Assembly: GCA_014239155.1 (NCBI GenBank)
Contig: JAAZZQ010000076.1
Span: 62,001-126,000 of the forward strand
Length of the DNA stretch: 64,000 nucleotides
DNA from: Lachnospiraceae bacterium
GTDB lineage: Bacteria > Bacillota > Clostridia > Lachnospirales > Lachnospiraceae
Direction of reading: 5' to 3'
The translations under genes were made by a program, and so were the position numbers. Each line of letters starts with the position of its first letter. Position 1 is the first letter of the stretch. The notes beneath the pieces are model-generated. The model was not told the origin of the DNA. It saw nothing but the letters and a program-made list of their open reading frames with translations, and did not search any database. Below, in pieces: positions 8,149-29,956 of the stretch.

Positions 8149-8775
8149 GTGAAACAGATTGAAAGAAAGACAGTTTGTGGCTGTTGCGGAAAGGAAATAA
8201 TACAAACAGTTACTATTAGTCGCTATCAGTCAGATATAGGACTTGACGGCAGACCCACAAAGGCAAGCGCATTGCCGTTGATACAGGAATGCAAGTATTG
8301 TCATTATTGTAGCATTGATTTAGGAAAAAAAATTTCTGATAAGGCAAAATCTGTTGTAATGTCAGCAGAATATCAAAATATCTTGAAAAAAGATTATGCA
8401 GATATGCAGATATGTAAATTGAAGGCTGCTATATATGCGACAGAGGATATAAGAGCAAAAGGATATCTTTATCTTGTAATCTGTTGGTATATGGAAATAC
8501 ATAATCTGCAAGGAGCCATAGAAATGAGGAGGTGTGCAGTTAACATTATGGAAGAGTTATTTGTGCATGGGGCCGATTTGGAAGAGATTTTAGTATATAT
8601 AGATTGTCTTCGGATTTTAGGACGTATGGCAGAGGCACAAGAGCAAATAACTGCTATAGAAGAATTGATAGAGGATAATTTTCCATCAGATAATATTTTA
8701 TATAAAAGATATAAATTTGAACAGCAACTGGTTTTAGAGAAAGACAGGAATGCTCATTATATAAGTGAGGTGTGA
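8149..8775 (+). CDS. Zinc-ribbon protein, first gene of the tubulin/GTPase operon
   Basis: A 208-aa protein. I took GTG at 8149, with AAAGGTGGG upstream, over an in-frame TTG at 8113 without a ribosome site. The N-terminus has a four-Cys zinc ribbon: CGCCGKE near residues 11-17, then about 40 residues later CKYCHYC. The spacer includes D-G-R-P and LIQECKYCHYC, which resembles DUF2225-like zinc proteins of Clostridia. The rest is helical and polar, perhaps TPR-like. No enzyme motif is seen. It ends 7 bases before the next start, so the genes are coupled. Role unknown; it may be an adaptor or scaffold. Confidence 0.6.
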   Translation: MKQIERKTVCGCCGKEIIQTVTISRYQSDIGLDGRPTKASALPLIQECKYCHYCSIDLGKKISDKAKSVVMSAEYQNILKKDYADMQICKLKAAIYATEDIRAKGYLYLVICWYMEIHNLQGAIEMRRCAVNIMEELFVHGADLEEILVYIDCLRILGRMAEAQEQITAIEELIEDNFPSDNILYKRYKFEQQLVLEKDRNAHYISEV

Positions 8776-8782
8776 CTGTAAC

Positions 8783-10060
8783 ATGGCTTTTTACCACATT
8801 ATTTTGCCAAAATCTAGTCAAAGTAGATTTTCTACATATTCTGAAGAGGAGCTTTTAGAACAATATAAAAATAAAGTTTGGAAAGAATTGGATTCACAGA
8901 GTAGGCTAGATTTAATGCATGAGACAATTGCCACATATTGTAAAAAAAACGGAATAAAAAGTGTTCCTAATATTTTAGAAGAGCGTTCTTCTAGTCTGTA
9001 TGGTAGTTATTCAGCTTATTCTAATACAGTGTATATTAATTTGGAACTCTGCAATAATCCATATGAGGCATTAGATACAATTATTCATGAGACAAATCAT
9101 GCATATCAGGAACAGTGTATCAAGGAGAATACTGGATATACTCAAGAGGAAAGAGCGCTGCTAAAGGCAGAAAACGGTGAGGCGTATCAAAAAGAAGGCT
9201 TAGCATACGAAAGGCAATCTTTGGAGACTGACAGTAACAATGCAGGAATTAAAATCTTATTGAGCGAGCAGGCGCGGTATGAGAAAGACCCACTTTTTGC
9301 TGAATATATGAGTAAACGTGTTCAATATTTTGGCAAAATTGCTGCTGATTACACACAAAATACAGAAGCCTCTCGAAATTCAGAACGTTTACAGCTAAAA
9401 AAGGCATATGAAGAGTGTGAAATTAGCGCAGAGGAATATCAATATGCCGCGAACTATTTACAGGATTCAAAGGATAATATAAAAAAGGAATCCGTAAAAT
9501 TAGAAACAAGCATACAGAAAAGTTTTAAAGAGTGTGTAATGATATGTAGCAAAGACCTACATAGACGTTTTGAACAATGCCAGTGGGATGGGAATCGCAA
9601 AGCAATGTCTCAAGTACATGAGGATATTACAATACACCAAAAGATATTGCAACAGTGTGAATGCAATACAAAGGTGTGCATTGATGCTAAACTGCAAGAG
9701 ATAAGGCAGTATGTGTGTGCAAATAATATGGGGCGTTATGATACAGAGAGAGATTCCTTTTATAAACAGATGGTTTCTGAATTAAGCGTCTTGCAGGAGG
9801 AACAGAAAAGATATAGTTATGCGATTGCGGAATTACAGACAGATAATCAATTAATGGGATATGATAAACAAGAGTTTTCTAAAGACTATAAGAACACTAT
9901 AGAAGAACAGAAAGGGGATGGCTTAGAACAGTGTTCTAATAATGCGCAAAAAAATTATATAACGCGTGACATGGATGATGGCTTAGATTTAGAAAATAAT
10001 TATCATTATGAAACTGTTGCTTTGGACAATAGTTTGGATTCTGGGATCGGTATAGAGTAA
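8783..10060 (+). CDS. HExxH-motif protein (putative zinc metallopeptidase) with coiled coil
   Basis: A 425-aa protein. ATG 8783 is preferred, with GAGGTG ten bases upstream; an in-frame GTG at 8765 overlaps the previous gene. Residues 60-110 read VPNILEERSS..., NTVYINLELCNNPYEALDTI and then IHETNHAYQEQ. H102-E-T-N-H106 is a zincin HExxH motif after a strand-like stretch, as in gluzincin/metzincin folds. No clear third ligand was assigned. Residues 180-370 are charged and helical, probably coiled coil. There is no signal peptide, so it acts in the cytosol or is exported another way. It sits second in the operon. Peptidase activity is inferred from one motif. Confidence 0.55.
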   Translation: MAFYHIILPKSSQSRFSTYSEEELLEQYKNKVWKELDSQSRLDLMHETIATYCKKNGIKSVPNILEERSSSLYGSYSAYSNTVYINLELCNNPYEALDTIIHETNHAYQEQCIKENTGYTQEERALLKAENGEAYQKEGLAYERQSLETDSNNAGIKILLSEQARYEKDPLFAEYMSKRVQYFGKIAADYTQNTEASRNSERLQLKKAYEECEISAEEYQYAANYLQDSKDNIKKESVKLETSIQKSFKECVMICSKDLHRRFEQCQWDGNRKAMSQVHEDITIHQKILQQCECNTKVCIDAKLQEIRQYVCANNMGRYDTERDSFYKQMVSELSVLQEEQKRYSYAIAELQTDNQLMGYDKQEFSKDYKNTIEEQKGDGLEQCSNNAQKNYITRDMDDGLDLENNYHYETVALDNSLDSGIGIE

Positions 10061-10100
10061 ACAATATATATGGTATTTGGCTTTAGAAGGAGAGTCATCT

Positions 10101-10736
10101 ATGAAAAAGAGAACACATATATCACCACAGGATGTCATAAATTACAATTTAAATTCTGCGAGTAACAGTCAATCTTCCATGACTGGTCAGAGTGGTATAT
10201 CAGGGTTAAATGAGTTTGAAAATAACGGATTGGGCAATAGTACATGGGATTCTGGTCTTACTTCGCAGGAAAATAGAAATACTGGATGGAGCAATATTCA
10301 CAGTGAAAATAATACAATTCCTTACTTGCATAATACATACAACATTAGAACAAGTAGAAATATAAAGGATATATTTTCTAAGATAGGGAGTGTATTACTG
10401 ATAATATTCTTTGTTGTTTTTGTGGTTGGTCTTATTATTGGATTTGTACAAAATAGAGAGGCAATTGGTGCGTCGCTTGGTGCGGTAATTAGTAATTTTG
10501 CATATGCATTAGCTGGAATATTGATCGAGACATTTATCATTTGGTGGTTAATCAATAGTTTTGCCAGATTAATTCGAATGGAAGCCTTGGTGTCCAAAAG
10601 AAAATACCAGATTTTTGCACTGATATTTGCAATATTTGTGATTGGCAAAATAATACCGGAGTTGGGTGCGGCTTTAGGTGGTGCTTGCTTGTTAATTGGG
10701 TCTATTGTATTTTTGATAAAGCTTTTAATAGATTAG
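10101..10736 (+). CDS. Small multi-spanning membrane protein
   Basis: A 211-aa protein. The ATG at 10101 has GAAGGAGA just upstream, so I use it rather than an in-frame TTG at 10077. The first 85 residues are Asn/Ser/Gly-rich and polar (NNGLGNSTWDSG-like), and then come about four hydrophobic helices: LLIIFFVVFVVGLIIGF, AVISNFAYALAGILIETFII, IFALIFAIFVIGKIIP and GACLLIGSIVFLIKLLI. No family is recognised. Lying between the HExxH gene and the VirD4-like ATPase, it may be the membrane partner of that ATPase, as small membrane proteins are in conjugation-type pumps (inference). Confidence 0.5.
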   Translation: MKKRTHISPQDVINYNLNSASNSQSSMTGQSGISGLNEFENNGLGNSTWDSGLTSQENRNTGWSNIHSENNTIPYLHNTYNIRTSRNIKDIFSKIGSVLLIIFFVVFVVGLIIGFVQNREAIGASLGAVISNFAYALAGILIETFIIWWLINSFARLIRMEALVSKRKYQIFALIFAIFVIGKIIPELGAALGGACLLIGSIVFLIKLLID

Positions 10737-10766
10737 AATTGTATTTTTAATAGGGGATTAGATGAA

Positions 10767-12098
10767 ATGGAAAAAACAAAAGTTATATTTGGCAATGATA
10801 TTAGAACGACTGTATATATTGAACAACCAGACGCTATTGTTCTATATGAGGATCGAGATAATTTAGAAAGTTCCTTTACATTAAATCCCCAAATATTGTC
10901 TCGACATCTGATGCTTTTAGGAGGTACAGGGAGTGGAAAGACGAACGTATTTAATCTGACATTGGAACAGTTGCGCGATGAGGAGAATACAAGTGAAAAT
11001 GATATATTGATTATATTTGATACAAAGGGAGATTTTAAAAGAAATTTTTATCGACATGGCGATATTATCTTAGGAAATGGAAAAGAATATCGCGCGCTCA
11101 GTGCAAGATGGAATATATTTGATGAGGTTTTGGCAGATGGAGATCATCCGGAAGATTATGAGATAAATGCACGAGAGATAGCTGCGTCTCTTTTTAGTGG
11201 GAGAGGTTCTTCTTCCCAGCCGTTTTTCAGTAATGCTGCGCGGGATATTTTTGCACATATAATTATTTATTTTATCAGAAGGGCAAAGGAAGATCCTAAT
11301 AGGCGCGGTCATCTGCTCAACAATCAATCCTTGGTTCAATTTTTATTAAATGCAGATGGTAGGAAGTACGATACTGTTTTTCGATATTATAAGGATATGG
11401 AAGGTCTGCTTTCATATATTGGAGATGGCAGTTCTAATCAGGCATTGGGAGTTTTTGGAGAACTTAAAAGTATGCTCTATGACTGTTTTTTAGGAGTTTT
11501 TGCAGAGGATGACAAAAAAGGACGATTTTCTATAAGAAATACAGTTCGAGAAAAAGGAGGGCGTGCTATTTTTGTGGAGTATGACTTGACAGTAGGGGAA
11601 TCGATGATACCAATTTATCGTTTGCTCATAGATTTAGCGTTAAAGGAAGCTTTGGGCAGAGGTGACACGGAAAAAGGGAATGTGTATTTAATTTTAGATG
11701 AACTGAAACTTCTTCCCAGATTACAGCATTTGGATGATGCCCTAAATTTTGGCAGAAGTATGGGGGTAAAAGTTATAGCGGGCTTGCAATCAGTAAATCA
11801 ATTGTATGATATTTATGGACGTGAGAAAGGTCTTGTAGTTGCAGGAGGTTTTGGTTCTATTTTTGCGTTTCGCACTTCAGACTTTGCGTCGCGAGAATAT
11901 GTATCGGAATTATTTGGGGAGAATGTAGTAGGATATCAGTATCAGGGAATAGACAGATTGTATAATATACGTGAACGAGAAGGTCACACAGTTGAGAGTT
12001 GGCATCAGACAGCGTTGAAGCAGGGACAAGCTGTTGTGGGGCTTGCTGATGAGACAACCCCTTTTTTGTTTCAATTTTCCGAATTTGTCAAGAATTAG
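10767..12098 (+). CDS. VirD4/TraG/HerA-like P-loop ATPase
   Basis: A 443-aa RecA/FtsK-superfamily ATPase. Walker A is G52-G-T-G-S-G-K-T59; Walker B is VYLILDE near residues 305-311. The context ILIIFDTKGDFKR after Walker A and LNFGRSMGVKVIAGLQSVNQL after Walker B are hallmarks of the VirD4/TraD coupling proteins and related HerA/TraG ATPases. There is no N-terminal membrane domain, so it would be a soluble motor docking on a membrane partner. No relaxase or mating genes are near, so conjugation is unlikely. The next gene is a paralogue without Walker A. A role as motor of the operon-encoded assembly is inference. Confidence 0.8.
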   Translation: MEKTKVIFGNDIRTTVYIEQPDAIVLYEDRDNLESSFTLNPQILSRHLMLLGGTGSGKTNVFNLTLEQLRDEENTSENDILIIFDTKGDFKRNFYRHGDIILGNGKEYRALSARWNIFDEVLADGDHPEDYEINAREIAASLFSGRGSSSQPFFSNAARDIFAHIIIYFIRRAKEDPNRRGHLLNNQSLVQFLLNADGRKYDTVFRYYKDMEGLLSYIGDGSSNQALGVFGELKSMLYDCFLGVFAEDDKKGRFSIRNTVREKGGRAIFVEYDLTVGESMIPIYRLLIDLALKEALGRGDTEKGNVYLILDELKLLPRLQHLDDALNFGRSMGVKVIAGLQSVNQLYDIYGREKGLVVAGGFGSIFAFRTSDFASREYVSELFGENVVGYQYQGIDRLYNIREREGHTVESWHQTALKQGQAVVGLADETTPFLFQFSEFVKN

Positions 12099-12128
12099 TT
12101 TGACAAAGAAGAGGGGAGTAAAGGTAGT

Positions 12129-13361
12129 ATGTTATTTAACGGCAGTGAGTGGATAAATAAGCGGAATAAAAATATTAATCAAGTTGGAAGTACGAATGCA
12201 GCAAAATGGATTCCAGATTCGGAAATTGGGACTAGCCTGGCTGTATTTGGAGGAAATGAAGCGCAAAGAATGCGAGTTGTTGGACAGGGAATTGCAAGAT
12301 GTTTTGGTCAAATGGGAATTGTTATTGTTCATAATAACTGGAATCTGGAGAATATGTTAAAGGATTTTAAAAATCAGTATGTTTTTCAAGCGGAGCGATA
12401 TCCTCAGACACCAGTATGTTTTGTAAATAGTGAGAATCCATGTTACGAACCACTTTATGGTCTCAATAGCAGCCGAGTGATAGATGCTGTTTATCCAAGA
12501 GATGCAAGAGAGAGTTCCGCGAATATGCAACAACATATATGTGCCGCTGCGTTAATGAAATATATAAAGATTTTAGAATATAAAAATGTACCAGTTGATT
12601 TGGATAATCTGCTTTATCTATCTAATATGGAGCTTGAAGTGCTAGAGCAAAGAGAATTAGGAAATGTTCCAGTAGGTATGAGAGATGATATATTGATATC
12701 GTTGTCACAAGATAATATTCTGCGACAGGTACGTGCTGATATAAATTACTTTGCAGCACAGATGGATGATAGGATATGGAGTGGACAAAGACCAGCATCC
12801 AATATTAGCATTATTGAGGCAGTAAAAAATAGAGCAATGCTTTCTGTGAAAGTGCCTAGTAATAGTGTGGCAATAATGGATTATCTATCAGTTGAGATAA
12901 ATGCTCTTTTAGATAGTGGTTTGCAATTTTTATTGGTGGTTGATTCGGTAAATTTTCAAAATAGTGCAATAAAAAATAGTATTGTGATAGCGCCATCGCA
13001 GATATCTATAATTTTGTCAGCTAAGGATATACAAGAGATTGATACAGCGGGGACGTCAAGTGGAATTGGCATTCTGAATAAAATGTCTAAGATCATATTA
13101 TTTCAGTGTGCCAATGCAATAGCTGCAAAACAGTATTCAGAATTAATTGGCAATTATTTGAGACAGTTTGAAAATTATAATTATAGTGAAGGCAAAGGAT
13201 TATTAGATATTTTGATTGGTCATGGCGAAGGAAGAGGTAAAGGCGTGTCAGAACAACTATATGCACGCATTGGACCAGAAGAACTGGTTCGTTTGGGAGA
13301 TGGAGCAGTGTTGATAAATCAAGTAAATGGACAGATTGATATCGCCAAAAGATTTATATAA
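12129..13361 (+). CDS. ATPase-like protein with degenerate Walker A (paralogue-like partner)
   Basis: A 410-aa protein whose layout follows the preceding ATPase. LAVFGGNEAQRMRVV takes the place of LMLLGGTGSGKTNVF, CYEPLYGL that of ARWNIFDEV, NMQQHICAAALMKYI that of FFSNAARDIFAHII, and LQFLLVVDSVNF that of Walker B. The glycine pair is kept, but the Lys and Thr that bind phosphate are gone (G41-G-N-E-A-Q-R-M48). It is probably a non-hydrolysing subunit forming mixed rings with its neighbour, or a regulator. Identity of the pair is my own alignment by eye, so relationship is likely but not proven. A RBS (GAGGGGAG) precedes the ATG. Confidence 0.6.
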   Translation: MLFNGSEWINKRNKNINQVGSTNAAKWIPDSEIGTSLAVFGGNEAQRMRVVGQGIARCFGQMGIVIVHNNWNLENMLKDFKNQYVFQAERYPQTPVCFVNSENPCYEPLYGLNSSRVIDAVYPRDARESSANMQQHICAAALMKYIKILEYKNVPVDLDNLLYLSNMELEVLEQRELGNVPVGMRDDILISLSQDNILRQVRADINYFAAQMDDRIWSGQRPASNISIIEAVKNRAMLSVKVPSNSVAIMDYLSVEINALLDSGLQFLLVVDSVNFQNSAIKNSIVIAPSQISIILSAKDIQEIDTAGTSSGIGILNKMSKIILFQCANAIAAKQYSELIGNYLRQFENYNYSEGKGLLDILIGHGEGRGKGVSEQLYARIGPEELVRLGDGAVLINQVNGQIDIAKRFI

Positions 13362-13376
13362 GAGAAGGAGACGCAT

Positions 13377-15584
13377 ATGAAGATTTATGCAAAAAGGTTA
13401 TTAGCAATTGCTTCTGTTTCATTAATATTATTTGTAACAGGGTGTGGCAATGCCAATAAGAATTCTGAGGTCTCTGACAATTTGGTGAAAAATATGGAGT
13501 CTAGCACAAATTCTAGAATTACAATTGGAGAGTTGGAGGAGAGTATAGGGACAGATGTTGTGCTCCTTATGGATGAGAGCGGTTCTATGATAAAGGCTGA
13601 CGAGAATCGTATTGCTATTGAAGGTGCAAAGCTATTTATCGATATGCAAAAGCTAACAAATGCAAACATTGCGTTTATTGAATTTTCAAATAAGGTTATT
13701 GCATCTGATATGCTGGAAATGACACAACAAAATAAAGAGAATTTAAAGGATATATTGGATAGTGTCAATTATGAAGGAACTGCCCATACAGATATTGGTG
13801 CGGGATTGCTCAAGTCAGTCGATATGCTAAATAACGCTGGAGATAACCGAAATAAGTCTATTATTTTATTTACAGATGGCAGAACAGATATTGATGTGGG
13901 AACTCCTGGCAGAAGTACAAAAGATTCTGAAAATGATGTGAGAGCTGCGGTACAAGAGGCTCAAGAGAGAGGATATAAAATATATTGTATTGGGTTAAAT
14001 GACAATGGAAGCGTTGATGAACAGGAGCTAAAGACAATTACGGAAACTACAGGGGGGCAATATCTGATTGCTTCCAATGTGGATGATATTACAATGTTTT
14101 TTGAGAAAATATTTGGCGCTATAGGGGATTCTGATGTTGAAAAATTGAAAGAATTTAAGGCAGATGGCAGTTATCAAGATGTTCAATTTTCTATAGAAGA
14201 TGAGAATATTATAGAAGCCAATATTGTAATATTATCCTCTAAAAGTATTGAAGATGTAATTCTTGCAAGGGTGGATGAAGATCCCGTGGATCTTGGCAAT
14301 AGTGACAAATTTGTTTTTACAAGATCTAACAGATATACTTTAGTGAAGATGATTCTTCCAATGAAGGGGGATTGGGTCATTCGTGTGAAGGGAGTATCTG
14401 GTGATTTAATTCATGTTAGCAAAATCTGTAATTATGAAATATCACTTATGGTAGATGTTAGTAAGACAAAGGTTAAGAGGGGCGAGACAGTTGATGTAAG
14501 GGCTTATTTATCATCGAGTGGAAAAGTGATTGCGGATGCTGAATATTATAGCAGTCTTGTGGGATATCTCCATGTAGTAAATACAGCTACAGGCAGTGAG
14601 ATACAGTCCGAGATGGATTCTGATAAGGATGGCAACGGCTTGCTTGGAGCGTTTGCGCCAGAAGACCGCGCAGTGTATGAAGTGCGCATACATATTCAAG
14701 GAAACGGATTTTATCGAGACAGCACTCCATTTTATGTTGAGGTTTATAAAGATCCGCTAGTGGTATCGCCAGATACGATTGAGTTAAGACTTACAACAGG
14801 CCAGCGGGAGGAAATCGATCTAAATCAATATTTTATAGATGAAAATGGCGACCAAATTTCTTATATTTTGTCTGAGTTGCCCAAAGAAGTGGATGCAGCA
14901 ATCACCGAAAATATTTTAAAGGTAACTGCGTTGCAAGAGGGAACTGTAAAATTACAAGTATTTGGTGATAATGGGTCTGCTGAGAAGGTGGGCTTAATAT
15001 TAGTATTAATTTGTGAAAAGAAAGAATTTCATATTTTTATTGTGATAGTTCCAATTGTGTTAATATTGGTAGTTTTGTGTATTATTTTAATACTTCGTAA
15101 AATGTCGCAAAAACTGCAAGGAAAATTTAAGTTTTCATTGGAATCATGCATGATGGATGAATATGGCACGCCTAGTATTACAGAATTTGATATTTTAACA
15201 GATATTAACGCAGATCAAGTTGGAAAACACGAATTTACTATTAAAAAGTTGTTAAGTTTTTTAAGTAGTTATTATTTGACGACAGAGTTTGTTGATAAGA
15301 AGAAAACACAGTTTACGCAATGCATAAATAAGGTGTCTCCGAATGCCAATAAGGTTAAAGTGTGTGGAACAAACAGAGAATTTACATTAAAAGTAAAGAA
15401 AAAAAGTAAGAGAGTACAATTTGTTGAAGGTGGGGTGGTTCGAGATAAACAGGCACTTGAAGTATCATTGGCAGGAGGATTCACAAATGTAGTGCCAGTG
15501 GCAGAGCGTACATTTGGTATTCGTTTTCAGATGGAAAAATCAAAGGAATATATACAAATCAATATTATCTATAGAAAAATGTAA
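13377..15584 (+). CDS. vWA-domain lipoprotein with a transmembrane segment and cytosolic tail
   Basis: A 735-aa protein. The N-terminus is a lipoprotein signal with lipobox V-T-G-C23. A von Willebrand A domain follows (about 58-250) with MIDAS D66-x-S-G-S70 in VVLLMDESGSM, plus the downstream Thr in GTAHTDIGAGL and Asp in ILFTDGRTD; the metal site looks complete. Residues about 300-540 look like beta-sandwich repeats. A strong helix at about 551-574 (IFIVIVPIVLILVVLCIILI) leads to a 160-residue charged tail. So the vWA part sits outside and the tail inside. That suits a signal-relaying or anchoring role next to the cytosolic tubulin-like protein encoded next (inference). Confidence 0.8.
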   Translation: MKIYAKRLLAIASVSLILFVTGCGNANKNSEVSDNLVKNMESSTNSRITIGELEESIGTDVVLLMDESGSMIKADENRIAIEGAKLFIDMQKLTNANIAFIEFSNKVIASDMLEMTQQNKENLKDILDSVNYEGTAHTDIGAGLLKSVDMLNNAGDNRNKSIILFTDGRTDIDVGTPGRSTKDSENDVRAAVQEAQERGYKIYCIGLNDNGSVDEQELKTITETTGGQYLIASNVDDITMFFEKIFGAIGDSDVEKLKEFKADGSYQDVQFSIEDENIIEANIVILSSKSIEDVILARVDEDPVDLGNSDKFVFTRSNRYTLVKMILPMKGDWVIRVKGVSGDLIHVSKICNYEISLMVDVSKTKVKRGETVDVRAYLSSSGKVIADAEYYSSLVGYLHVVNTATGSEIQSEMDSDKDGNGLLGAFAPEDRAVYEVRIHIQGNGFYRDSTPFYVEVYKDPLVVSPDTIELRLTTGQREEIDLNQYFIDENGDQISYILSELPKEVDAAITENILKVTALQEGTVKLQVFGDNGSAEKVGLILVLICEKKEFHIFIVIVPIVLILVVLCIILILRKMSQKLQGKFKFSLESCMMDEYGTPSITEFDILTDINADQVGKHEFTIKKLLSFLSSYYLTTEFVDKKKTQFTQCINKVSPNANKVKVCGTNREFTLKVKKKSKRVQFVEGGVVRDKQALEVSLAGGFTNVVPVAERTFGIRFQMEKSKEYIQINIIYRKM

Positions 15585-15621
15585 TTATTTATAATAAAAA
15601 ATATAAATAGGGGGTAGCGGG

Positions 15622-19071: not shown

Positions 19072-19091
19072 ACTTAAGAGGAGAAGTGTCA

Positions 19092-20936: not shown

Positions 20937-20959
20937 GATTGTCTAAGGAGGATATTGGC

Positions 20960-21496
20960 ATGCCCGAAAACGTATTTATTCGATGTGAAGGAAATTTCAT
21001 AAAGGTGAATTGGGAATGGGGAAGTGGTGATTTCATTTCCATGAAAATCTTCTATAAGAAAAAAGAAATTGAGAACGGAGATGGTTCTGAGTTTATATTA
21101 GGAGGCGTTCTGTATTATCCCGGGAAGCAAAATGGCAATGCGGAGAAAAGGTTGACAAACGAAAATGGTCTGTATACTTTTACGCTACTGCCAGTTGGGA
21201 AAAATGGAATTTCTGGACAAAAGACAGTGGTTACGGATATTATGCTGGGAGAGCAAAAAGAAGTAAATTGGCATATTGTTTATCAAAAGGACAGAGTTTT
21301 GATTGTTTTTCCAAAACTGGAGTTCACCATTCCGTCAAATGTAGTCCTTATAAAATATGATAATTATATAGCGCCATTAAATTATGCGATTAATGGTGAT
21401 AGCAGGTTATTTTTCCCATTTAAAGTAGATACAGGGCATATTGCGTTGATCGCGAAGAAACCATACGATAAAGTATATCAGTTTATACAGATTTAA
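20960..21496 (+). CDS. Small predicted beta-sandwich protein
   Basis: A 178-aa protein. ATG 20960 is chosen because AAGGAGG lies eight bases upstream; an in-frame TTG at 20933 overlaps the previous gene. The sequence is almost all short alternating strands (FIRCEGNFIKVNWEWGSGDF, LYTFTLLPVGKNGISGQKTV, DRVLIVFPKLEFTIPSNVVL), suggesting one or two Ig/fibronectin-III-like domains without a signal peptide. No catalytic motif is seen. It is followed after 12 bases by the TRAFAC GTPase. It may be an adaptor of the complex. Confidence 0.45.
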   Translation: MPENVFIRCEGNFIKVNWEWGSGDFISMKIFYKKKEIENGDGSEFILGGVLYYPGKQNGNAEKRLTNENGLYTFTLLPVGKNGISGQKTVVTDIMLGEQKEVNWHIVYQKDRVLIVFPKLEFTIPSNVVLIKYDNYIAPLNYAINGDSRLFFPFKVDTGHIALIAKKPYDKVYQFIQI

Positions 21497-21508
21497 TAGG
21501 GAGGTATT

Positions 21509-23164: not shown

Positions 23165-23188
23165 ATGGAAGGAAGGGTGTGAGCTGCA

Positions 23189-25702
23189 ATGATGCAATTA
23201 TTATATGGCAATGATGGTACAAATTATGTTACAGTAGCGAAATCAGCAGAATTAACACCTGTGCAGGAAAAGGAATTGTTTAAGGGATATTTAGGATATG
23301 ATTTTGTAAATAATACTTCTCTATATTCAAGTATTTCCAACCAGCCAATTTCTTTAACTTATGTTACCACAGACTTGTCTGAGAGTTTGCCAAAGGAAAT
23401 GATATTGCTGTCAAAAAATGCAAGAATGTCAAATTATCAAACCCCATCTTACTATGCTCATTTTCAGCTTATGGATATGGAGGAATCTTTGTATGGAGAA
23501 GATTTTTTGTTACTTTTGAAACGAACATTTATTAAAGATAGAAATCTATATGATTATATTGGAAGTACACTGGATAATTTTCAAAGTACAATTGACGAGT
23601 CGGTGGTATTAAATTACGATGCGATAGAGCAGGAAAAGCTAATAGCAATTGTTGCAAGTGTTTTATCAGTTGCAGATACGCTGTCAAAAAGAGTTAGTAT
23701 TATTCTGGATGTAACAGGTGACGCGTATAATGTACGCGCTCTGGATGTAATTGCAACAATCTATACATATCTGCCTTATAATATTCGTCGTAGCGTTGGG
23801 TTCTCCACATATGCGGGAGAGGATTCCAAAATTTCCAATAGAATTAAAGTGCAGCTATATACGCGTGATATGGCTGCAAAAAGAGAGGAAGGAATGATGG
23901 ACCTTGCCAATATGAATCCACAGGAAATAATACGACAGCTTCCACAAAATATTGTACAACTTGCCAAAGATTTTGTGGAGAGTGATGTATCGGTCAGAAA
24001 AGGATGGTTTCAAGCATTTATCAGTGTGTTTCAACTACAAAAAGTGACTGTAGAAGATCATGAAGCATTTTTTAAAAGTATTCGCAAATGGCAGAGAGCA
24101 GATTTGGAAACAATTAAGGATGAGATTGCCATATATGCTTATACAGAGATGCAGAAACCGGAAAAATCTATAGGATTTCAAATGTTTCAGAATACTATGA
24201 AAGAGCGTTTTTTTGTAGAAGAATATCAAGAGAGATTTCATGAGATTATCGAAGAATTACTGAAAGAACAAACGAAAATGGAATTTGATAAACGCTTAAA
24301 GGCATACATTATGCTTGGAGAGGCGATTCCGGGAATTACCTTTCAACAGGATACATTTAATAACTGGATAAAAGCAAGATATATTGATAGGATAAGGCGT
24401 GAGTCTAAAAGTGACAACCAGAAATTGCTTCAGGCTTTTAACGAATTAAATGAAAAAATTAAGAGAATAAATTATGGTGCTGAGAAGTTTGTAGAAATAA
24501 AGAGTAAAATTGAAGCTCAGCTAAAGGATGAGATACAATTAGTACAAAATCAAATAAATAAAGATATTGAAAATGAGAGGAACAGAATATGTAATGCTAT
24601 TAGGCAACCAAAAATAATTCCGTATTATAACGTGGTTGAACAAATATGCAAAGAGATTCGATATGAAGAAAATAAAAATATATTTAAACAGTTACTAGGT
24701 AAAAGAATACAGAAATATTTATTTGGTATATCATATTTTTGCAGCTATTCAGACTATAATACTCTTTTGGAGTTTGTTAATAATTGTCAGGAAATGCTTG
24801 ATGAAAAAAATTATTGTGCAATTGTAGAGATTGTGGAAGAAAAGGGAGAAGCAGTGAAAATTATGGACACATACAAAAAAATAGGGTGGAAAAATTGGAA
24901 TGATATTCTAATGACTTATCAAAATATTACGTATATGGAAATTGCTTCTAACAGAAAGAAGGATATTATTATTCCAGATTATCAATTGATAATTGATTCT
25001 GAAGAGTATTTTATTGACAGTAAAAGATTAAAAGCACTTACTCAATTTATGGTAGATCCAAAAAGTAATGAGATAGAAGCAAGAAAAATTTTTAGACAAA
25101 GTCCTAGTTTATTGTATAGTTTAATGAATATCAATATTTTTGATGAAAGGCACTTTACTTTTCTTATGGATTTTGCGCCAAATATTGGTGATCAGATGGA
25201 AGCATATCAGGAACAAATATTATGTTATTATATCAATAATTCAAATTTGTTGTCGGAGGAAAACCTTAAGAGCCAAATAGATTGTTTGGATGCTTGTCTT
25301 TTGAAACGTCTGGAAAATAATCTAAATTTATCTGAAAGAAGAAATACAAATCTAGTTCAGATGGTGATACAAAATAATATTCAACAAAATAATATTCAAG
25401 CAGTAACTGAGTTGGATTCTACAACAATAAAACTGCCGATCGTTGCATTTAGCATTTCGATATTGCCAGCACTCATGTTTATGGTATCAGCGTTTATGAC
25501 AGTATTATTAAATTCTCAATTCACTCCGCTTGCCATGTTAACAATTTTTTGTATTTTGTGTGGTGTTTCTTTGTGGGCAGTGGTAAATTTTTTATACAAA
25601 AAGGATATACATGGATGGTTTTTTGGAAGTATCATAGGTTTTGGTTTATCTGTACCAGCAATTTGGATAGCATATGTGATTGTTCATTTTATTTTAATAT
25701 AA
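23189..25702 (+). CDS. GAP1-like large protein with C-terminal membrane helices
   Basis: An 837-aa protein. The N-terminus (M-Q-L-L-Y-G-N-D-G, then TPVQEKELFKGYLGYD, YVTTDLSESLPKEMILLSKN and SYYAHFQLM) follows the pattern I recall for the N-terminal domain of 'GTPase-associated protein 1', including the Y-x-H stretch. Residues 110-250 (VASVLSVADTLSKRVSII, YNIRRSVGFSTYAG) fit its middle part, and 400-740 are coiled and helical. Three hydrophobic helices close the protein (about 750-835: IVAFSISILPALMFMVSAFM and two more). It directly follows the TRAFAC GTPase, as in GAP1 pairs. It is likely the GTPase partner at the membrane. Family call is moderate; role is inferred. Confidence 0.6.
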   Translation: MMQLLYGNDGTNYVTVAKSAELTPVQEKELFKGYLGYDFVNNTSLYSSISNQPISLTYVTTDLSESLPKEMILLSKNARMSNYQTPSYYAHFQLMDMEESLYGEDFLLLLKRTFIKDRNLYDYIGSTLDNFQSTIDESVVLNYDAIEQEKLIAIVASVLSVADTLSKRVSIILDVTGDAYNVRALDVIATIYTYLPYNIRRSVGFSTYAGEDSKISNRIKVQLYTRDMAAKREEGMMDLANMNPQEIIRQLPQNIVQLAKDFVESDVSVRKGWFQAFISVFQLQKVTVEDHEAFFKSIRKWQRADLETIKDEIAIYAYTEMQKPEKSIGFQMFQNTMKERFFVEEYQERFHEIIEELLKEQTKMEFDKRLKAYIMLGEAIPGITFQQDTFNNWIKARYIDRIRRESKSDNQKLLQAFNELNEKIKRINYGAEKFVEIKSKIEAQLKDEIQLVQNQINKDIENERNRICNAIRQPKIIPYYNVVEQICKEIRYEENKNIFKQLLGKRIQKYLFGISYFCSYSDYNTLLEFVNNCQEMLDEKNYCAIVEIVEEKGEAVKIMDTYKKIGWKNWNDILMTYQNITYMEIASNRKKDIIIPDYQLIIDSEEYFIDSKRLKALTQFMVDPKSNEIEARKIFRQSPSLLYSLMNINIFDERHFTFLMDFAPNIGDQMEAYQEQILCYYINNSNLLSEENLKSQIDCLDACLLKRLENNLNLSERRNTNLVQMVIQNNIQQNNIQAVTELDSTTIKLPIVAFSISILPALMFMVSAFMTVLLNSQFTPLAMLTIFCILCGVSLWAVVNFLYKKDIHGWFFGSIIGFGLSVPAIWIAYVIVHFILI

Positions 25703-25721
25703 GGATTGGGAGAGATAGACT

Positions 25722-26276
25722 ATGAAGTGGAAAAAAAATAAAATATTAGTATCTTTATTATGCATATCCCCGTCGTTATTGCTGGTTACAGCTACTTTGC
25801 TTATTGTACCGCGTGTTGCAAAACAGAAAGAGTCTATTCAAAATCCTACTGAATCAATTATTGATGCGGAAAGTAGAACTGAGAGTATGTTTGACACCAT
25901 AGAATCTCTTTCTTCTGAAATGTTTCAAGAGAATACGATATGGACTGACCAGTCAGAGTATCAAGAAGAGACAGAAGATATCACAAGGGCAACAAAAATC
26001 AGTCAACCAGTAGAAACAGTTACTTCAGAAGGAACAATAGAAAACAGTCAAACAATAGATCCTACAGATTTAACAACACCAGAGCAAACGGAATCTTCCG
26101 CAATGCCAGAGAATGCTACTCAATCAGACAATGTGATATCAACAAAGGCATCAGAGGAAAATAGCCAGACAATTGAGTCTATGAAATCAACGGAAACAAT
26201 AGAAAATAGTTCTCCAGAAGCATCAACAAATGTTGTTGAAGGAATAGAGCAAGGTCAACCAATAAAAACTGCCTGA
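25722..26276 (+). CDS. Single-pass Ser/Thr/Glu-rich surface protein
   Basis: A 184-aa protein with an N-terminal hydrophobic segment (ILVSLLCISPSLLLVTATLL, residues 8-27) after a Lys-rich start, so it is a signal anchor. The rest, about 150 residues, is disordered and rich in Ser, Thr, Glu and Gln, with loose repeats such as T-I-E-N-S-Q-T-I and T-E-T-I-E-N-S-S. It looks like an extracellular stalk or glycosylation substrate. No LPxTG is seen. It begins 19 bases after the GAP1-like gene and is probably in the same transcript. Confidence 0.55.
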   Translation: MKWKKNKILVSLLCISPSLLLVTATLLIVPRVAKQKESIQNPTESIIDAESRTESMFDTIESLSSEMFQENTIWTDQSEYQEETEDITRATKISQPVETVTSEGTIENSQTIDPTDLTTPEQTESSAMPENATQSDNVISTKASEENSQTIESMKSTETIENSSPEASTNVVEGIEQGQPIKTA

Positions 26277-26355
26277 CTTAAGGCGAAGGATTTCAGAAAA
26301 TAATTGATTTAAAATGACATAAACTTCTGGAAGATGCGTAGGAGGAAATGCGGCG

Positions 26356-27672
26356 ATGAATGAACCTTTGAGATGTCCGAAATGTGGAGAAATAGTGTCA
26401 AGTGGTGAACGAATGTGCCCAAAATGTTGGGCGGTACTTCCTTATGTATCACCTGAACCTGAACCTGATCCTGAACCTATACCTAATGAACCAGATATAT
26501 TGTATTCTGAAAACAAGTGTAAAAAATGCAATGCAGATTTGCCGCAGGGAGTAAAAAAGTGCCCAGAATGCGGAAAAGTGGTTAAATCTTATAAGGGTAT
26601 TTTATGGATAATTCTTCTTATTATAGTAGCACTAGCATTTGGAGTATGGCTGTTAAGAGGTAAAATAACTTCTGAGTCTGATTCAAAGCCAGAACTAAGT
26701 TCTGCGCAAAATGTACAATCAAATACAGATTCTGATTCAAAACTAGCTTCCAACTCAAAAGCAGATGATACCCAAAAAACAGTAAGTCCTCCTGATTTTG
26801 CAAAGGCAAATGAATTGCGGGATTTTGGAAAGGAATTGATTGCTGTGGATGCAACAATTCCAGAAGGAATGGAGACGCTGAGAAAGGCAATTTCTCTCTA
26901 TGTAGAAATAGCAGAACAAGCAGGAGATGCAACGTTGGTATCAAATCAAATTGAGGATACATATGCTTCCTATGAGGCGACGCTACTCAAACATAAGAGT
27001 ATGATGGAAGGCTCGTTATCTGGTGGAATTTATGCACAGATTATGGAGGAGTTAAATGATGCAGTTTCTTTCGGGGAAGATTTGATGGCTAAAGGGTATA
27101 CGATTGATGTTTCCTCTTTGACAGAGACAAGAGATACATTTCACAAAGAATATATCAAACGTATGGCGGAGGAATTTAACAGTTTTACGCAGCGGGATAT
27201 GTGGTCTCGAACGGAGGCGTGGAAATTGATAAGTGATACCGCAGGCAATATGTTTGATCCTGCGGAATTGGATGATCCTATTCGATTGCGGTATGTATAT
27301 GCACTTTCATGGTGGATACAGAGACAACTTGAAACAGAAATTGGAAATGGAACGATCACTGAAAAAGGTGCCGCAATTAAAATTGCAAATCAGATTGAGG
27401 AAATGGATTACAATCCGATGATGATACAATATTATATTACATATATGAATCATTCTGGTGAGGACTGCTCAGAAGTAGAGAAAGCATATCAGGACATTGT
27501 AGATTATCTTGCACAAACACAAGGGATACGACTTGGGGAAGACATTGCATTAGATCGATTCTGGTATTTTAATGATTTTGAAAACTATCCAGTTGATAGT
27601 AAAAATGGCGTGACTTCCCAAAATCGGCAGTGGATACGTGAGCGCATGAAATCCGTGTCCTTTACCAAATAA
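26356..27672 (+). CDS. Double zinc-ribbon membrane protein
   Basis: A 438-aa protein. Two zinc ribbons lie at the N-terminus: C7-P-K-C10 with C21-P-K-C24, and CKKC with CPEC near residues 50-70. A Pro/Glu/Asp linker of E-P-E-P-D-P-E-P type joins them. A helix at about 80-98 (ILWIILLIIVALAFGVWLL) follows, so the ribbons are cytosolic and the 340-residue C-terminal part is extracytoplasmic. That part has a polar Ser/Gln linker and then a helical domain with W/Y-rich segments. The ribbon-TM-stalk layout is common in clostridial envelope proteins. It may carry a signal between cytosol and surface within the system. Confidence 0.6.
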   Translation: MNEPLRCPKCGEIVSSGERMCPKCWAVLPYVSPEPEPDPEPIPNEPDILYSENKCKKCNADLPQGVKKCPECGKVVKSYKGILWIILLIIVALAFGVWLLRGKITSESDSKPELSSAQNVQSNTDSDSKLASNSKADDTQKTVSPPDFAKANELRDFGKELIAVDATIPEGMETLRKAISLYVEIAEQAGDATLVSNQIEDTYASYEATLLKHKSMMEGSLSGGIYAQIMEELNDAVSFGEDLMAKGYTIDVSSLTETRDTFHKEYIKRMAEEFNSFTQRDMWSRTEAWKLISDTAGNMFDPAELDDPIRLRYVYALSWWIQRQLETEIGNGTITEKGAAIKIANQIEEMDYNPMMIQYYITYMNHSGEDCSEVEKAYQDIVDYLAQTQGIRLGEDIALDRFWYFNDFENYPVDSKNGVTSQNRQWIRERMKSVSFTK

Positions 27673-27705
27673 AAATCTTGACAGAAAAAGGGTAGGAAAA
27701 GACAA

Positions 27706-28869
27706 ATGAGAAACAGAAAGTCGAATAAGGGAATTTTAATAAAAATATTAATTTTTTCTTTGGTTGTATTGGCATTGCTTTTATTGGTGGTAGCACTTAT
27801 TCACATCAGAACGCAAGAGAAGGAAAAAGAGACCTCAAAAATGACAGAAGTTGAATCATCAGAGTGTTCAGAAGTTATTAGCAGTGTTCCTGAATCTGAG
27901 GAAGAGAGTGATATTGTAATATATCCAGCTCCAGAATTTGATTTTACTTGTGAGGAGGTAACGATAAAAATTCCTGAAATGAGTGAGGAGTACACATTTG
28001 CATGGGTTAGTGATTTACATATGATTACTGATTTGATCATTAACGTTGAAAGAAAGCCTCTGCTCCGAATCGTTAGTGATTTACATATGATTACTGATTT
28101 GGATCCTGCGCAAGACGTGATGCCCGGTAATGAGGAGACAATTCAGTTTCGCTATAAATTTTTCTCTACGCCTGATGGTATGCGAAGTGTTGAGCTGTGG
28201 CCAGAAGTTGTCAAATTTCTAAATTATAGGGATTTTGATGGAATTATATTTGGTGGAGATATGCTTGATTATTACAGTGATTCTAATCTCAAGGCATTTA
28301 TGCAGGAGTTTCAGAAATTAAAATCTGAAGTGCCAATATTGTATATTCGAGCAGATCACGATTATGGATATTGGTATGGCGGGGAAGTGCTAAAAGAAAC
28401 GGATACACATGCATTACATAAGACAATTGACAAAGATGATATAAACGATAAATATTGGGAATTTGATGATTTTATTATGATAGGAGTAAATAACTCAACA
28501 AAGGATATGCCCCAAGAGCAGCTTGATCTGATATCATCTTTATATGAAAAAAACAAAAAAATAATTATGGTAACACATGTGCCTTATGCGTCTAAGATAG
28601 ATGAAAGTTTAGAGGCGTTGTCTATGGAGGTACGAAAGAAAATGTATTATTGGGGCGGAGGAGATTATATTCCAAATGCTATAACAAAAGCATATCTTGA
28701 TAAAGTTTATGCAGAGGATACAAATATTTGTCAGGTGTTAGCAGGGCATCTTCATGCACAGTGGGATGGAATGCTTACACAGCAGGTGCCTCAACACATT
28801 TTTACGCCAAGTTATATGGGAACAATAGGGATCATTCATGTAGTAGGCGAGGAAAATGGAAATGAGTAG
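27706..28869 (+). CDS. Membrane-anchored calcineurin-like metallophosphoesterase
   Basis: A 387-aa protein with a signal anchor (residues 10-32) and acidic linker. Metal motifs are D103-L-H (VSDLHMITDL), GGDMLDYY, a variant ADHDYG in place of GNHD, VTHVPY and AGHLHAQ, so the usual set is present except the Asn of GNH[DE]. It would act outside the membrane. The first motif is duplicated in frame at residues 101-110 and 123-132 by a 66-base offset (see findings), which inserts 22 residues at the active site. Such an insert could disable or alter the enzyme. It lies at the end of the operon. Confidence 0.75.
   Translation: MRNRKSNKGILIKILIFSLVVLALLLLVVALIHIRTQEKEKETSKMTEVESSECSEVISSVPESEEESDIVIYPAPEFDFTCEEVTIKIPEMSEEYTFAWVSDLHMITDLIINVERKPLLRIVSDLHMITDLDPAQDVMPGNEETIQFRYKFFSTPDGMRSVELWPEVVKFLNYRDFDGIIFGGDMLDYYSDSNLKAFMQEFQKLKSEVPILYIRADHDYGYWYGGEVLKETDTHALHKTIDKDDINDKYWEFDDFIMIGVNNSTKDMPQEQLDLISSLYEKNKKIIMVTHVPYASKIDESLEALSMEVRKKMYYWGGGDYIPNAITKAYLDKVYAEDTNICQVLAGHLHAQWDGMLTQQVPQHIFTPSYMGTIGIIHVVGEENGNE
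28006..28101 (+). repeat. Perfect 30-bp direct repeat inside the phosphoesterase gene
   Basis: Bases 28006-28035 and 28072-28101 are identical (starting GTTAGTGATTTACATATG). The 36 bases between them do not match either flank, so this is not a simple tandem duplication. The frame is kept. Confidence 0.9.
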
Positions 28870-29956
28870 CATATATAAATGCTTAATTTTGACTTTTATC
28901 TTGCTTTTAACAATGTCTGAAATAGATGCAAGGGCTTCGGAACAGGAGGGCATTGGCGCAAGTGTGCTCCCTGTTCAGGAAAATTATTCTACTGATGTAG
29001 TTTATAAGGAAGAAAGTATACTAATACGGACGGGCACGAGTGTGGTAGTTGATATGGAAATGCAGTCAGGAGTTTCTATAAAAGGCTCTCCCTATCCAAA
29101 CGGTGAAAATACTTATGAGCAGCTAAAGGTACCTACACAAATTATAAAGACAGGAGGTTTTTATTTCATAGTAGATTGTTATCACAATCAAATTTTATAT
29201 CATAATCAGATGTCGACAGATATAAGGGATTGGAAAGTACTAACGCGGGATGTAGAGTTGCCACATTCCATTGCAAGTGATGGGAATATGTTTCTTGTTA
29301 CAGATACAGAAAGAAACCGTATTTTGGTATTTCAATGGCAATTTTCTCGATTTCGTCATGTACAGACATTTACAGCAATAGGAAAACGTCCTCATTATAT
29401 TGAATATGACAGAGAGACACAGTCATTTTTTGTATGGAGTTCTATGACAGGTGAGATGTATGTATTTAAAACAGATTTGATGACAGACATGGTCTGTTTA
29501 AGTCAAATTAGGCACATTTTTGAGCTTAAGGATTACTATGTCCGGTCATTTTCCATCATAGGAGATAAGATTCTGTTTCCCTCGGGAACAAATAGCTATA
29601 TGATATTGGCAGATAAGAATACATTAGCGGTTGAGGAAAGATATCCTGTTACACCTGAAATTGCAGGAATGGCATATGTACTTAATATTGGAAAGTATTA
29701 TTATATGACAGTTGCATGTGATTTGAAAGCGGATCAGAAAAAGGCAACAATCATTCGTACAACAGATTTGACAAGCTTATCGGTGGGGGAATACGAAACT
29801 ATTTACAAACAGATTAGTTCCATGCCAAATGGTATACCATATTATATAGACTATTTTGACGGTGCGTTTTATATGACACAGCATAATACATCAAAAAGTG
29901 TAGTGAAATTTCAGATTCAGAATGATATGATTGTGAATACAAAAATGATGTTTTAA
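28862..29956 (+). CDS. Secreted propeller-like protein
   Basis: A 364-aa protein. ATG 28862 lies nine bases after GAGG; an in-frame ATG at 28856 is possible. It overlaps the phosphoesterase stop. A signal peptide (CLILTFILLLTMSEIDARAS) is clear. The mature part has repeats typical of NHL/YVTN-like beta-propellers: GGFYFIVDCYHNQILYHN, DGNMFLVTDTERNRILVFQW and then IEYDRETQSFFVWSSMTG. These are about 45-50 residues apart. It probably binds a ligand at the cell surface. It is the last gene of the tight operon, 39 bases before the SIR2 gene. Confidence 0.6.
   Translation: MSSIYKCLILTFILLLTMSEIDARASEQEGIGASVLPVQENYSTDVVYKEESILIRTGTSVVVDMEMQSGVSIKGSPYPNGENTYEQLKVPTQIIKTGGFYFIVDCYHNQILYHNQMSTDIRDWKVLTRDVELPHSIASDGNMFLVTDTERNRILVFQWQFSRFRHVQTFTAIGKRPHYIEYDRETQSFFVWSSMTGEMYVFKTDLMTDMVCLSQIRHIFELKDYYVRSFSIIGDKILFPSGTNSYMILADKNTLAVEERYPVTPEIAGMAYVLNIGKYYYMTVACDLKADQKKATIIRTTDLTSLSVGEYETIYKQISSMPNGIPYYIDYFDGAFYMTQHNTSKSVVKFQIQNDMIVNTKMMF

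What the first reader, a model, noticed from the sequence alone, without database searches (positions are those of the whole stretch)
8149..29956. A 22-kb, about 15-gene operon joining a tubulin-like GTPase, a TRAFAC GTPase with GAP1-like partner, VirD4/HerA-like ATPases and a vWA lipoprotein
Seen: tight co-directional genes with overlaps or short gaps, a tubulin G-box (GGGTGSG), a TRAFAC P-loop (GSSRVGKT), a Walker A (GGTGSGKT) in a VirD4-like ATPase, a complete MIDAS in a lipoprotein, and several single-pass or multi-pass membrane proteins. Known: TRAFAC GTPases with GAP1 proteins, vWA proteins and tubulin-like proteins have been linked to NTP-dependent biological conflict systems. Inference: the products form one envelope-spanning machine with two GTP switches, an ATP motor and surface sensors. 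I know no described system with exactly this gene set.
Basis: partly seen in the sequence, partly recalled or inferred. Interest (0 to 1): 0.93.

Follow-up and report, generated by a model that had tools for sequence, protein, structure and literature searches.

The report
Tubulin-GTPase conflict operon with motor pair
A gut bacterium carries a long gene cluster that looks like a known but untested type of bacterial conflict system built on a GTP switch and a tubulin-like protein, and it adds a pair of motor-like ATPase genes that relatives show beside other versions of the same system and that I did not find reported there.

Summary
The operon is real and longer than stated: 17 tightly packed + strand genes, 8149-33678, ending with a SIR2-HATPase gene and a signal-bearing protein. 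Its core (vWA lipoprotein, Tubulin_2, 622-aa protein, FN3-like protein, DO-GTPase, GAP1) belongs to the published GAP1-N2 GTPase-centric conflict systems (Kaur et al. 2020, PMC7159879); its order recurs in the best 80 tubulin loci of named genomes (vWA-tubulin 77, GTPase-GAP1 59). So 'no described system' is wrong for the core. Not found described: the front module o1-o5, with a TrwB/VirD4-like ATPase lacking a membrane domain (o4), a Walker-less relative (o5) and a zincin-like gene (o2). o4 is absent from all 80 loci, yet o4-o5 pairs form one lineage (6 rows, 100/98), and five of the six lie beside tubulin/GTPase, GrpE/HSP70 or kinase/PP2C/vWA genes, the three published GAP1-N2 themes. Two such genomes also carry an Imm33/GH-E immunity-nuclease pair. 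A 91% relative lost o2-o4 and most of o1 and o5 but kept o6-o15, so the module is separable. Best reading: an envelope-linked, GTP-switched conflict system whose ATPase pair handles effector proteins. Function untested.

The parts
8149..8775 (+). o1, zinc-ribbon-like protein (CGCC, CKYC)
   Evidence: relative (183 aa) directly upstream of the zincin-TrwB pair in L081, 6e-12; no Pfam
8765..10060 (+). o2, zincin-like protein (HETNH); candidate effector or processing peptidase
   Evidence: L081 relative 5e-22; HExxH invariant in an alignment of 5 genes next to or one gene from o4-family genes; no Pfam or PHROG
10107..10736 (+). o3, multi-pass membrane protein
   Evidence: hydrophobic segments 86-209; no relative at 1e-3 in 164 loci
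10767..12098 (+). o4, TrwB/VirD4-like ATPase without TM, Walker A GGTGSGKT, Walker B LILDEL
   Evidence: TrwB_AAD_bind 1.2e-46; motifs; family in 13 of 392 order genomes and 7 of 391 class genomes, own genome counted in both
12129..13361 (+). o5, Walker-less probable degenerate relative of o4
   Evidence: family profile to o4 family: 75% probability, 2.6e-5 over 184 columns; subset L058/L074/L075 73%, 3e-5 over 345 columns; window+L176 alone 0.4%; no Walker A in 6 of 6
13377..15584 (+). o6, vWA lipoprotein with MIDAS, TM near 538-580 and cytoplasmic tail
   Evidence: VWA 6.4e-19; profile made without window and G016 finds it at 2e-111
15622..19071 (+). o7, Tubulin_2 GTPase with long C-terminal region
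   Evidence: Pfam 3.3e-51; profile made without window and G016 finds it at 2e-157
19068..20936 (+). o8, 622-aa protein in the position of a second, degenerate tubulin
   Evidence: synteny; positional counterparts in Paenibacillus/Clostridium type loci match tubulin at 97%; window o8 itself inconclusive
20933..21496 (+). o9, tandem FN3-like protein
   Evidence: AlphaFold2 pLDDT 87.1; Foldseek best hits tandem FN3, E 1.4e-5, TM about 0.4
21509..23164 (+). o10, DO-GTPase (TRAFAC) with CxxC motifs before the P-loop
   Evidence: DO-GTPase2 38.5 bits, cut-off 27; DLPGE
23189..25702 (+). o11, GAP1 with C-terminal TM segments
   Evidence: GAP1-M 28.6 bits, cut-off 24; 96.8% to a GAP1 alignment that includes L099, 219 columns; TM 745-837
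25722..26276 (+). o12, signal-anchored Ser/Thr/Glu-rich protein
   Evidence: TM 6-33; found only in G016 among 164 loci
26356..27672 (+). o13, zinc-ribbon protein with one TM
   Evidence: Zn_Ribbon_1 8.3e-8; TM 73-106
27706..28869 (+). o14, membrane-anchored metallophosphoesterase
   Evidence: Metallophos 2.9e-7; TM 6-38
28856..29956 (+). o15, secreted protein with an NHL repeat
   Evidence: NHL 1.7e-4; hydrophobic segment 3-21
29996..32740 (+). o16, SIR2_2 + HATPase (Hsp90-like) candidate NADase effector
   Evidence: SIR2_2 1.3e-24, HATPase_c_3 2.3e-13; PADLOC PDC-S25 2.2e-65; motifs GSGLS, TTNYD, KIHG
32734..33678 (+). o17, secreted or anchored protein, last gene of the cluster
   Evidence: overlaps o16 by 7 bp; TM 38-63

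Best explanation
The locus is a GAP1-N2-type, GTPase-centred conflict system of the tubulin kind with an added two-ATPase module. Shown: the core gene set and order, the domains, recurrence in relatives, patchy presence in the genus, and separability of o1-o5. Inferred: the vWA lipoprotein, FN3 protein and secreted products sense envelope or infection damage. The DO-GTPase and the membrane-anchored GAP1 act as the threshold switch and license assembly of the tubulin-like protein (perhaps with o8) into a membrane-proximal scaffold. o4, helped by its inactive partner o5 and anchored through o3, uses ATP to unfold, load or move a protein cargo, most simply the zincin o2. SIR2-HATPase depletes NAD as a second, cell-suicide output.
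For: Pfam hits above cut-off for DO-GTPase2, GAP1-M, Tubulin_2, VWA. Order of scored genes in the best 80 of 437 related loci: vWA-tubulin 77, tubulin-second gene 73, FN3-GTPase 71, GTPase-GAP1 59. L099 Paenibacillus locus has GAP1-N2 2.9e-46 and GAP1-M 1.9e-29; window GAP1 aligns to an alignment including it at 96.8%. Published description with tubulin, vWA, FN3 and TM parts. Present in 2 of 36 genomes of the genus. o4-o5 pairs are one side of a branch (100/98; 0 of 500 shuffles as clustered). Their loci: window; L075+L225, overlapping stretches of one contig, TrwB-o5-GrpE-HSP70-HSP70-FN3-GTPase-862aa-GTPase-235aa-Imm33-GH-E; L058 with GrpE-HSP70-HSP70; L074 with Pkinase-vWA-PP2C; L176 beside divergent HSP70 genes. 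o4-carrying order genomes are enriched for tubulin (7 of 13 against 54 of 392) and DO-GTPase2 (6 of 13 at equal search depth, or 7 of 13 at deeper search, against 41 of 325). SIR2 motifs intact. dN/dS 0.06-0.28 for o6-o11 between window and G016.
Against: o4 occurs in 0 of 80 tubulin loci. G016 lacks o2-o4 and most of o1 and o5 and keeps o6-o15; its SIR2 gene is truncated (412 aa), so the output is dispensable or decaying there. L084, in the o4-o5 lineage, sits beside ThiF and AAA genes, not GAP1-N2 genes; G614 and G337, both with o4-o5, have no DO-GTPase2 hit. 11 of 13 o4 rows without o5 show no GAP1-N2 gene in the stretch fetched. The GAP1-N2 domain itself was not hit in o11, nor GAP1 in the 862- and 824-aa genes of L225/L226. 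The o5-o4 kinship is weak for the window's own branch (0.4%). Enrichment tests ignore shared ancestry. No functional data.
Confidence: 0.6

Rival explanations
1. The o4-o5 pair handles DNA, as conjugative coupling proteins and HerA do: it captures, extrudes or degrades invading DNA or drives mobile-element transfer, and the GTPase-tubulin core regulates it.
For: Closest families of o4 are TrwB/TraD coupling proteins; PADLOC weak HerA and mad8 hits; plasmid-borne relatives in Paenibacillus and Curtobacterium at 33-35% identity.
Against: o4 has no TM domain; no relaxase or VirB-type gene among the 17 cluster genes by Pfam; genes next to the o4-o5 lineage are chaperones, kinases and GTPases, and toxin-type proteins lie beside some o4 genes.
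Confidence: 0.2
2. Two separate systems happen to be adjacent: a TrwB-zincin module (o1-o5) and a GAP1-N2 tubulin system (o6-o11), plus a SIR2-HATPase defence gene, in a variable site.
For: 0 of 80 tubulin loci carry o4; loss of most of o1-o5 in G016; o1-o2-o4 without tubulin in L081; site differs in the genus.
Against: 15 bp between o5 and o6 and no terminator-like site there; the o4-o5 lineage lies beside GAP1-N2-type modules in 5 of 6 loci; in L075+L225 one contig runs from TrwB to the GTPases with gaps of at most 51 bp.
Confidence: 0.35
3. An envelope or cytoskeletal maintenance machine, not a conflict system: the tubulin scaffold organises cell-surface processing with secreted phosphoesterase, NHL-repeat and vWA proteins.
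For: Seven products (o6, o11-o15, o17) with membrane or signal segments; no experiment showing defence by GAP1-N2 systems turned up in the listings.
Against: Patchy presence (2 of 36 in the genus); SIR2-HATPase effector in the operon; Imm33/GH-E pair in relatives.
Confidence: 0.15

Closest known systems
GAP1-N2 GTPase-centric systems, firmicute tubulin theme (Kaur, Burroughs, Iyer, Aravind 2020, PMC7159879)
   Same: DO-GTPase, GAP1, FN3 component, Tubulin_2 protein, vWA, membrane parts
   Different: one vWA gene instead of two; second tubulin not shown; TrwB-pseudoTrwB pair, zincin and SIR2-HATPase added; the words TrwB, VirD4, T4SS and coupling protein do not occur in the text of that paper
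Type IV coupling proteins (TrwB/VirD4/TraD)
   Same: RecA-like motor core with Walker A and B
   Different: no N-terminal membrane domain, no relaxase or T4SS genes in the cluster, paired with a Walker-less probable homologue
SIR2-HerA (recalled) and PDC-S25 type SIR2 defence genes (PADLOC)
   Same: SIR2_2 + HATPase gene matches PDC-S25 at 2.2e-65
   Different: no DUF87-type HerA partner beside it; the ATPase is TrwB-like and about 18 kb away
Polymorphic-toxin cassettes (GH-E nuclease with Imm33)
   Same: two related HSP70/GTPase loci and one TrwB locus carry this pair
   Different: the window has a zincin-like gene near o4 and no recognised immunity gene

Membership tests
GAP1-N2 GTPase-centric system | DO-GTPase with P-loop and Walker B glutamate | tested here: met
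   DO-GTPase2 38.5 bits over a 27 cut-off; GSSRVGKT and DLPGE
GAP1-N2 GTPase-centric system | GAP1 protein encoded downstream of the GTPase | tested here: met
   GAP1-M 28.6 bits over 24; 24 bp after o10
GAP1-N2 GTPase-centric system | GAP1-N domain of type N2 | tested here: inconclusive
   no direct Pfam hit in o11; profile alignment over 219 columns to a GAP1 set that includes L099, which has GAP1-N2; none to L080 alone (0.3%)
GAP1-N2 GTPase-centric system | FN3-repeat component | tested here: met
   o9 model, best Foldseek hits tandem FN3 domains, TM about 0.4
Firmicute tubulin theme of GAP1-N2 | Tubulin-domain protein | tested here: met
   Tubulin_2 3.3e-51
Firmicute tubulin theme of GAP1-N2 | two tubulin genes | tested here: inconclusive
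   o8 has the position; sequence and fold tests do not decide
Firmicute tubulin theme of GAP1-N2 | two vWA genes, one with YtkA | tested here: not met
   one vWA gene among 17; hence filed under GAP1-N2 and not as this exact sub-theme
GAP1-N2 GTPase-centric system | anti-invader activity | not testable with these tools
   needs phage and toxicity assays; inferred in the source paper too
Type IV coupling protein (TrwB/VirD4) | RecA-like motor with Walker motifs | tested here: met
   o4:
Type IV coupling protein (TrwB/VirD4) | N-terminal membrane domain | tested here: not met
   no hydrophobic segment in o4
Type IV coupling protein (TrwB/VirD4) | relaxase or T4SS genes nearby | tested here: not met
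   none among the 17 cluster genes by Pfam
SIR2-HerA defence system | adjacent SIR2 and DUF87-type HerA genes (definition recalled) | tested here: not met
   o4 scores TrwB_AAD_bind 159.8 bits and DUF87 31 bits; genes about 18 kb apart
PDC-S25 candidate defence gene | match to the PADLOC profile | tested here: met
   2.2e-65, best stretch residues 144-405, intact GSGLS, TTNYD, KIHG

The most novel reading that the evidence does not exclude
A two-subunit ATPase (active TrwB-like plus inactive partner) is an unrecognised motor lineage of GAP1-N2 systems, exchanged between the tubulin, HSP70/GrpE and kinase/PP2C versions. It makes them GTP- or phosphorylation-gated machines that load or translocate toxin-type proteins (zincins, GH-E nucleases with Imm33) at or across the membrane, closer to a toxin-delivery apparatus than to a purely intracellular alarm.
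Probability: 0.3. Interest if true: 0.85.

Novelty: new variant of a known kind. Interest (0 to 1): 0.6.

Why it matters
GAP1-N2 systems are found in many Bacillota, but my paper searches turned up no experiment on one (listings). A motor lineage that recurs beside all three published themes, with toxin and immunity genes in some of the same clusters, gives a concrete and testable guess at their output. The G016 relative that lost the motor module offers a natural control pair, and the defined operon is a cloneable unit for testing what bacterial tubulin-like proteins and TRAFAC switches do together.

Tried and rejected

o5 relatives by single-sequence search: 2 non-self hits in 392 genomes; the hit in G175 (L059) lies in a protein that by eye looks like a glycosidase and was dropped as spurious. 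A viral-contig scan with o5 found none. o2 in phages: none at 1e-3. o2 family against PDB sequences: best 0.028, unrelated. o8 against PDB sequences: best 6.3e-4, designed repeat proteins with no stretch passing on its own. Tubulin in plasmids: 3 records, all under 29% identity and at most 35% of the query covered.

L036 2950-4596, first taken as GAP1 by position, and L077 5032-6843, found with it, are histidine kinases and were dropped. The 862- and 824-aa genes in GAP1 position of L225/L226 are not confirmed as GAP1 by Pfam or profile. Profiles of positional o8, o9 and GAP1 counterparts built without window and G016 do not find the window proteins; only tubulin, vWA and GTPase do.

Rows and limits: the tree of o4 has 19 rows, 17 from genomes (window included) and 2 from plasmids; three o4 hits cut by contig ends (G069, G248, G495) were left out. 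The first GTPase comparison (7 of 13 against 41 of 325, p 3.5e-4) mixed search depths: one search scored nearly every candidate, only eight per genome, and I assumed which o4 genomes were in the draw. At the shallow depth it is 6 of 13, p 0.0025, still assuming that all 13 were drawn. The contrast of o4 with o5 (5 of 6 near GAP1-N2-type modules) and without (2 of 13) gives Fisher p 0.0095, on flanks of unequal length and contexts scored by hand. The 80 loci are the best 80 of 437, found with one conserved peptide pattern; many are Paenibacillus, and some models used to score them were built from members of the set (without the ten named the counts are 67, 64, 61 and 51 of 70; some of the 70 also share contigs with seed loci). 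'Adjacent' there means next among scored + strand genes. The genus count of 2 of 36 rests on genomes of varied completeness; one more genome of the genus had no match.
Full report
What is there. The window lies in a 4.57-Mb draft genome; its 91% relative G016, placed in the same genus, is titled Lachnospiraceae bacterium (L090). From 8149 to 33678 there are 17 + strand genes (o1-o17) with overlaps or gaps of at most 79 bp. The next gene, an ABC transporter at 33879, comes after 200 bp and has a match in 14 of 14 searched genomes of the genus. In the 7 whose neighbourhood I fetched, no DNA of this operon was found beside it, and the genes there differ between several of them; L215 has only about 2 kb upstream and L218 almost none. 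G+C is 0.28-0.38 over the operon and 0.38-0.42 in the next 8 kb. No + strand terminator-like site falls between its genes.

Core. o6-o11 are a vWA lipoprotein with MIDAS, a Tubulin_2 protein with GGGTGSG, a 622-aa protein, a 187-aa protein, a DO-GTPase and GAP1. The 187-aa protein was modelled at pLDDT 87.1 and its best structural matches are tandem fibronectin type III domains. A tubulin alignment found 437 relatives in named genomes, of which the best 80 were kept. Among scored + strand genes, vWA is followed by tubulin in 77 of 80, tubulin by a second gene (about 600-850 aa in those I read) in 73, FN3 by GTPase in 71, GTPase by GAP1 in 59; several loci are cut by contig ends. The second gene matches tubulin by profile in Paenibacillus/Clostridium-type loci (97%) and Pfam Tubulin_2 in L099 just below cut-off (24.3 of 27 bits). 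For window o8 this could not be shown. L099 has GAP1-N2 at 2.9e-46, and window GAP1 aligns at 96.8% to an alignment that includes it.

This core is described. Kaur et al. 2020 (PMC7159879; I saw the abstract, sections 27 and 29 in full, and passages) name DO-GTPases, GAP1 and the GAP1-N2 type with FN3 parts. They say that about 52% of GAP1-N2 neighbourhoods, restricted to firmicutes and actinobacteria, centre on tubulin genes, with two tubulins and two vWA genes in firmicutes. The window has one vWA gene, so I file it as a GAP1-N2 system but not that exact sub-theme. The other library searches (listings only) showed no experimental work on such a system; subscription journals are mostly not in that library.

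Front module. o4 is TrwB/VirD4-like with intact Walker motifs and no membrane segment. o5 lacks a Walker A; its family aligns to the o4 family at 75% probability (E 2.6e-5, 184 columns) and the subset L058/L074/L075 at 73% over 345 columns (E 3e-5, 17% identity). But the window with its nearest o5 relative gives 0.4%, L084 alone 4.6%, and those three together 0.05%, so the tie rests on the wider family and is probable, not proven. o2 has HETNH; five genes next to, or in the window one gene from, o4-family genes share HExxH, out of 19 o4 loci looked at. o1 and o2 both have relatives directly upstream of TrwB in L081.

Where else it occurs. o4 relatives at E 1e-40 are in 13 of 392 genomes of the order (14 loci) and 7 of 391 of the class, own genome in both. 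An o5-type gene follows o4 in 6 of the 19 loci with a full o4. In the tree of those 19 rows these six are one side of a branch (100/98; 0 of 500 shuffles as clustered). Their neighbours: the window (tubulin/GTPase/GAP1); L075 with L225, two overlapping stretches of one contig (o5, GrpE-like, two HSP70, FN3, DO-GTPase, an 862-aa gene, a second GTPase, a 235-aa gene, Imm33, GH-E nuclease; gaps of at most 51 bp); L058 (o5, GrpE, two HSP70), whose contig ends inside the second HSP70 gene, while another contig of that genome, L226, has an HSP70 end at its edge followed by FN3, GTPase, 824-aa gene, GTPase, Imm33, GH-E; L074 (o5, protein kinase, vWA, PP2C, a second vWA); L176 (zincin upstream, HSP70 genes divergent); and L084 (zincin upstream, ThiF and AAA downstream), which does not fit. 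These are the three themes that Kaur et al. list for GAP1-N2. The words TrwB, VirD4, T4SS and coupling protein do not occur in that text; HerA occurs once, in a reference title, and the FtsK passages I saw concern other systems or references. Two o4 rows without o5 also lie in the same co-directional cluster as tubulin genes (L079/L080/L053 and L082/L083); for the other 11 of 13 I saw no GAP1-N2 gene in the stretch fetched. Next to o4 in L082 stands an Imm33/GH-E pair.

Association tests. Among order genomes, 7 of 13 with o4 have a tubulin relative against 54 of 392 overall (Fisher p 5.8e-4). For DO-GTPase2 over cut-off it is 6 of 13 at equal search depth against 41 of 325 (p 0.0025), or 7 of 13 with the deeper search (p 3.5e-4). 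Relatedness is not corrected. Against a tight link: 0 of 80 tubulin loci carry o4 on either strand (18 are shorter than 22 kb), and G337 and G614, both with o4-o5, have no DO-GTPase2.

Natural deletion. G016 is colinear from 6482 to 35562 but lacks 8391-12469; pieces of o5 remain, so its ancestor very likely had the module. It keeps o6-o15 open, with dN/dS of 0.06-0.28 for o6-o11, and has a truncated SIR2 gene (412 of 914 aa). The core therefore persists without the motor module, though this cannot date the selection.

Effectors and envelope. o16 joins an intact SIR2-like domain to an Hsp90-type ATPase domain and matches the candidate defence family PDC-S25 (2.2e-65). o6, o11, o12, o13, o14, o15 and o17 have membrane or signal segments. 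o12-o17 were found only in G016 among 164 loci, whose flanks often do not reach that far.

Judgement. I commit to a GAP1-N2 conflict system with an added protein-handling ATPase pair (0.6). Gene content, order, motifs, recurrence of the core and separability of the module are shown. Sensing, switching, scaffold, cargo and NAD loss are inferred. The cargo reading rests on toxin-type neighbours of o4 in relatives and on HExxH genes near o4 in five loci; a DNA-handling role (0.2) and plain adjacency of two systems (0.35) are not excluded. The odds overlap, since the systems could be separable and still work together.

Noticed in passing
window 5158-6430: IS605-type TnpB gene (OrfB_IS605 2.6e-20, Cas12f1-like TNB 1.7e-19) followed at 6359-6430 by a RAGATH-18 RNA (66.4 bits), just upstream of the operon; possibly its guide-type RNA.
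   Followed up: no
L223 (G000:C86) 1422-7518: The same genome has what looks like a second GTPase-centric system: two DO-GTPase hits side by side, a 634-aa GAP1-N1-like protein, a 363-aa protein and a metallophosphoesterase-like protein (these three by eye).
   Followed up: partly
L225 918-1540, L226 2186-2919, L082 13079-14210: Imm33 immunity protein paired with GH-E HNH nuclease inside HSP70/GTPase clusters and next to a TrwB-like gene.
   Followed up: partly
L077, L078, L079, L081, L082, L177, L178, L181: A zinc-ribbon, by eye PH-like, multi-TM protein recurs near o4-family genes without o5, often with a variable low-complexity or toxin-like gene between them.
   Followed up: partly
L074 679-10191: TrwB-o5 leading a protein kinase, vWA, PP2C, DUF6273 and second vWA array in a genome of the window's order; the source paper gives the kinase theme as restricted to actinobacteria.
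   Followed up: no
window 44278-47773: HD-CE domain gene overlapping a KaiC-type ATPase gene, an unexplained pair.
   Followed up: no
window 6509-7771: Secreted beta-helix/pectinesterase-like protein (weak Pfam hits below cut-off) just upstream, also kept in G016 at 80% identity.
   Followed up: no
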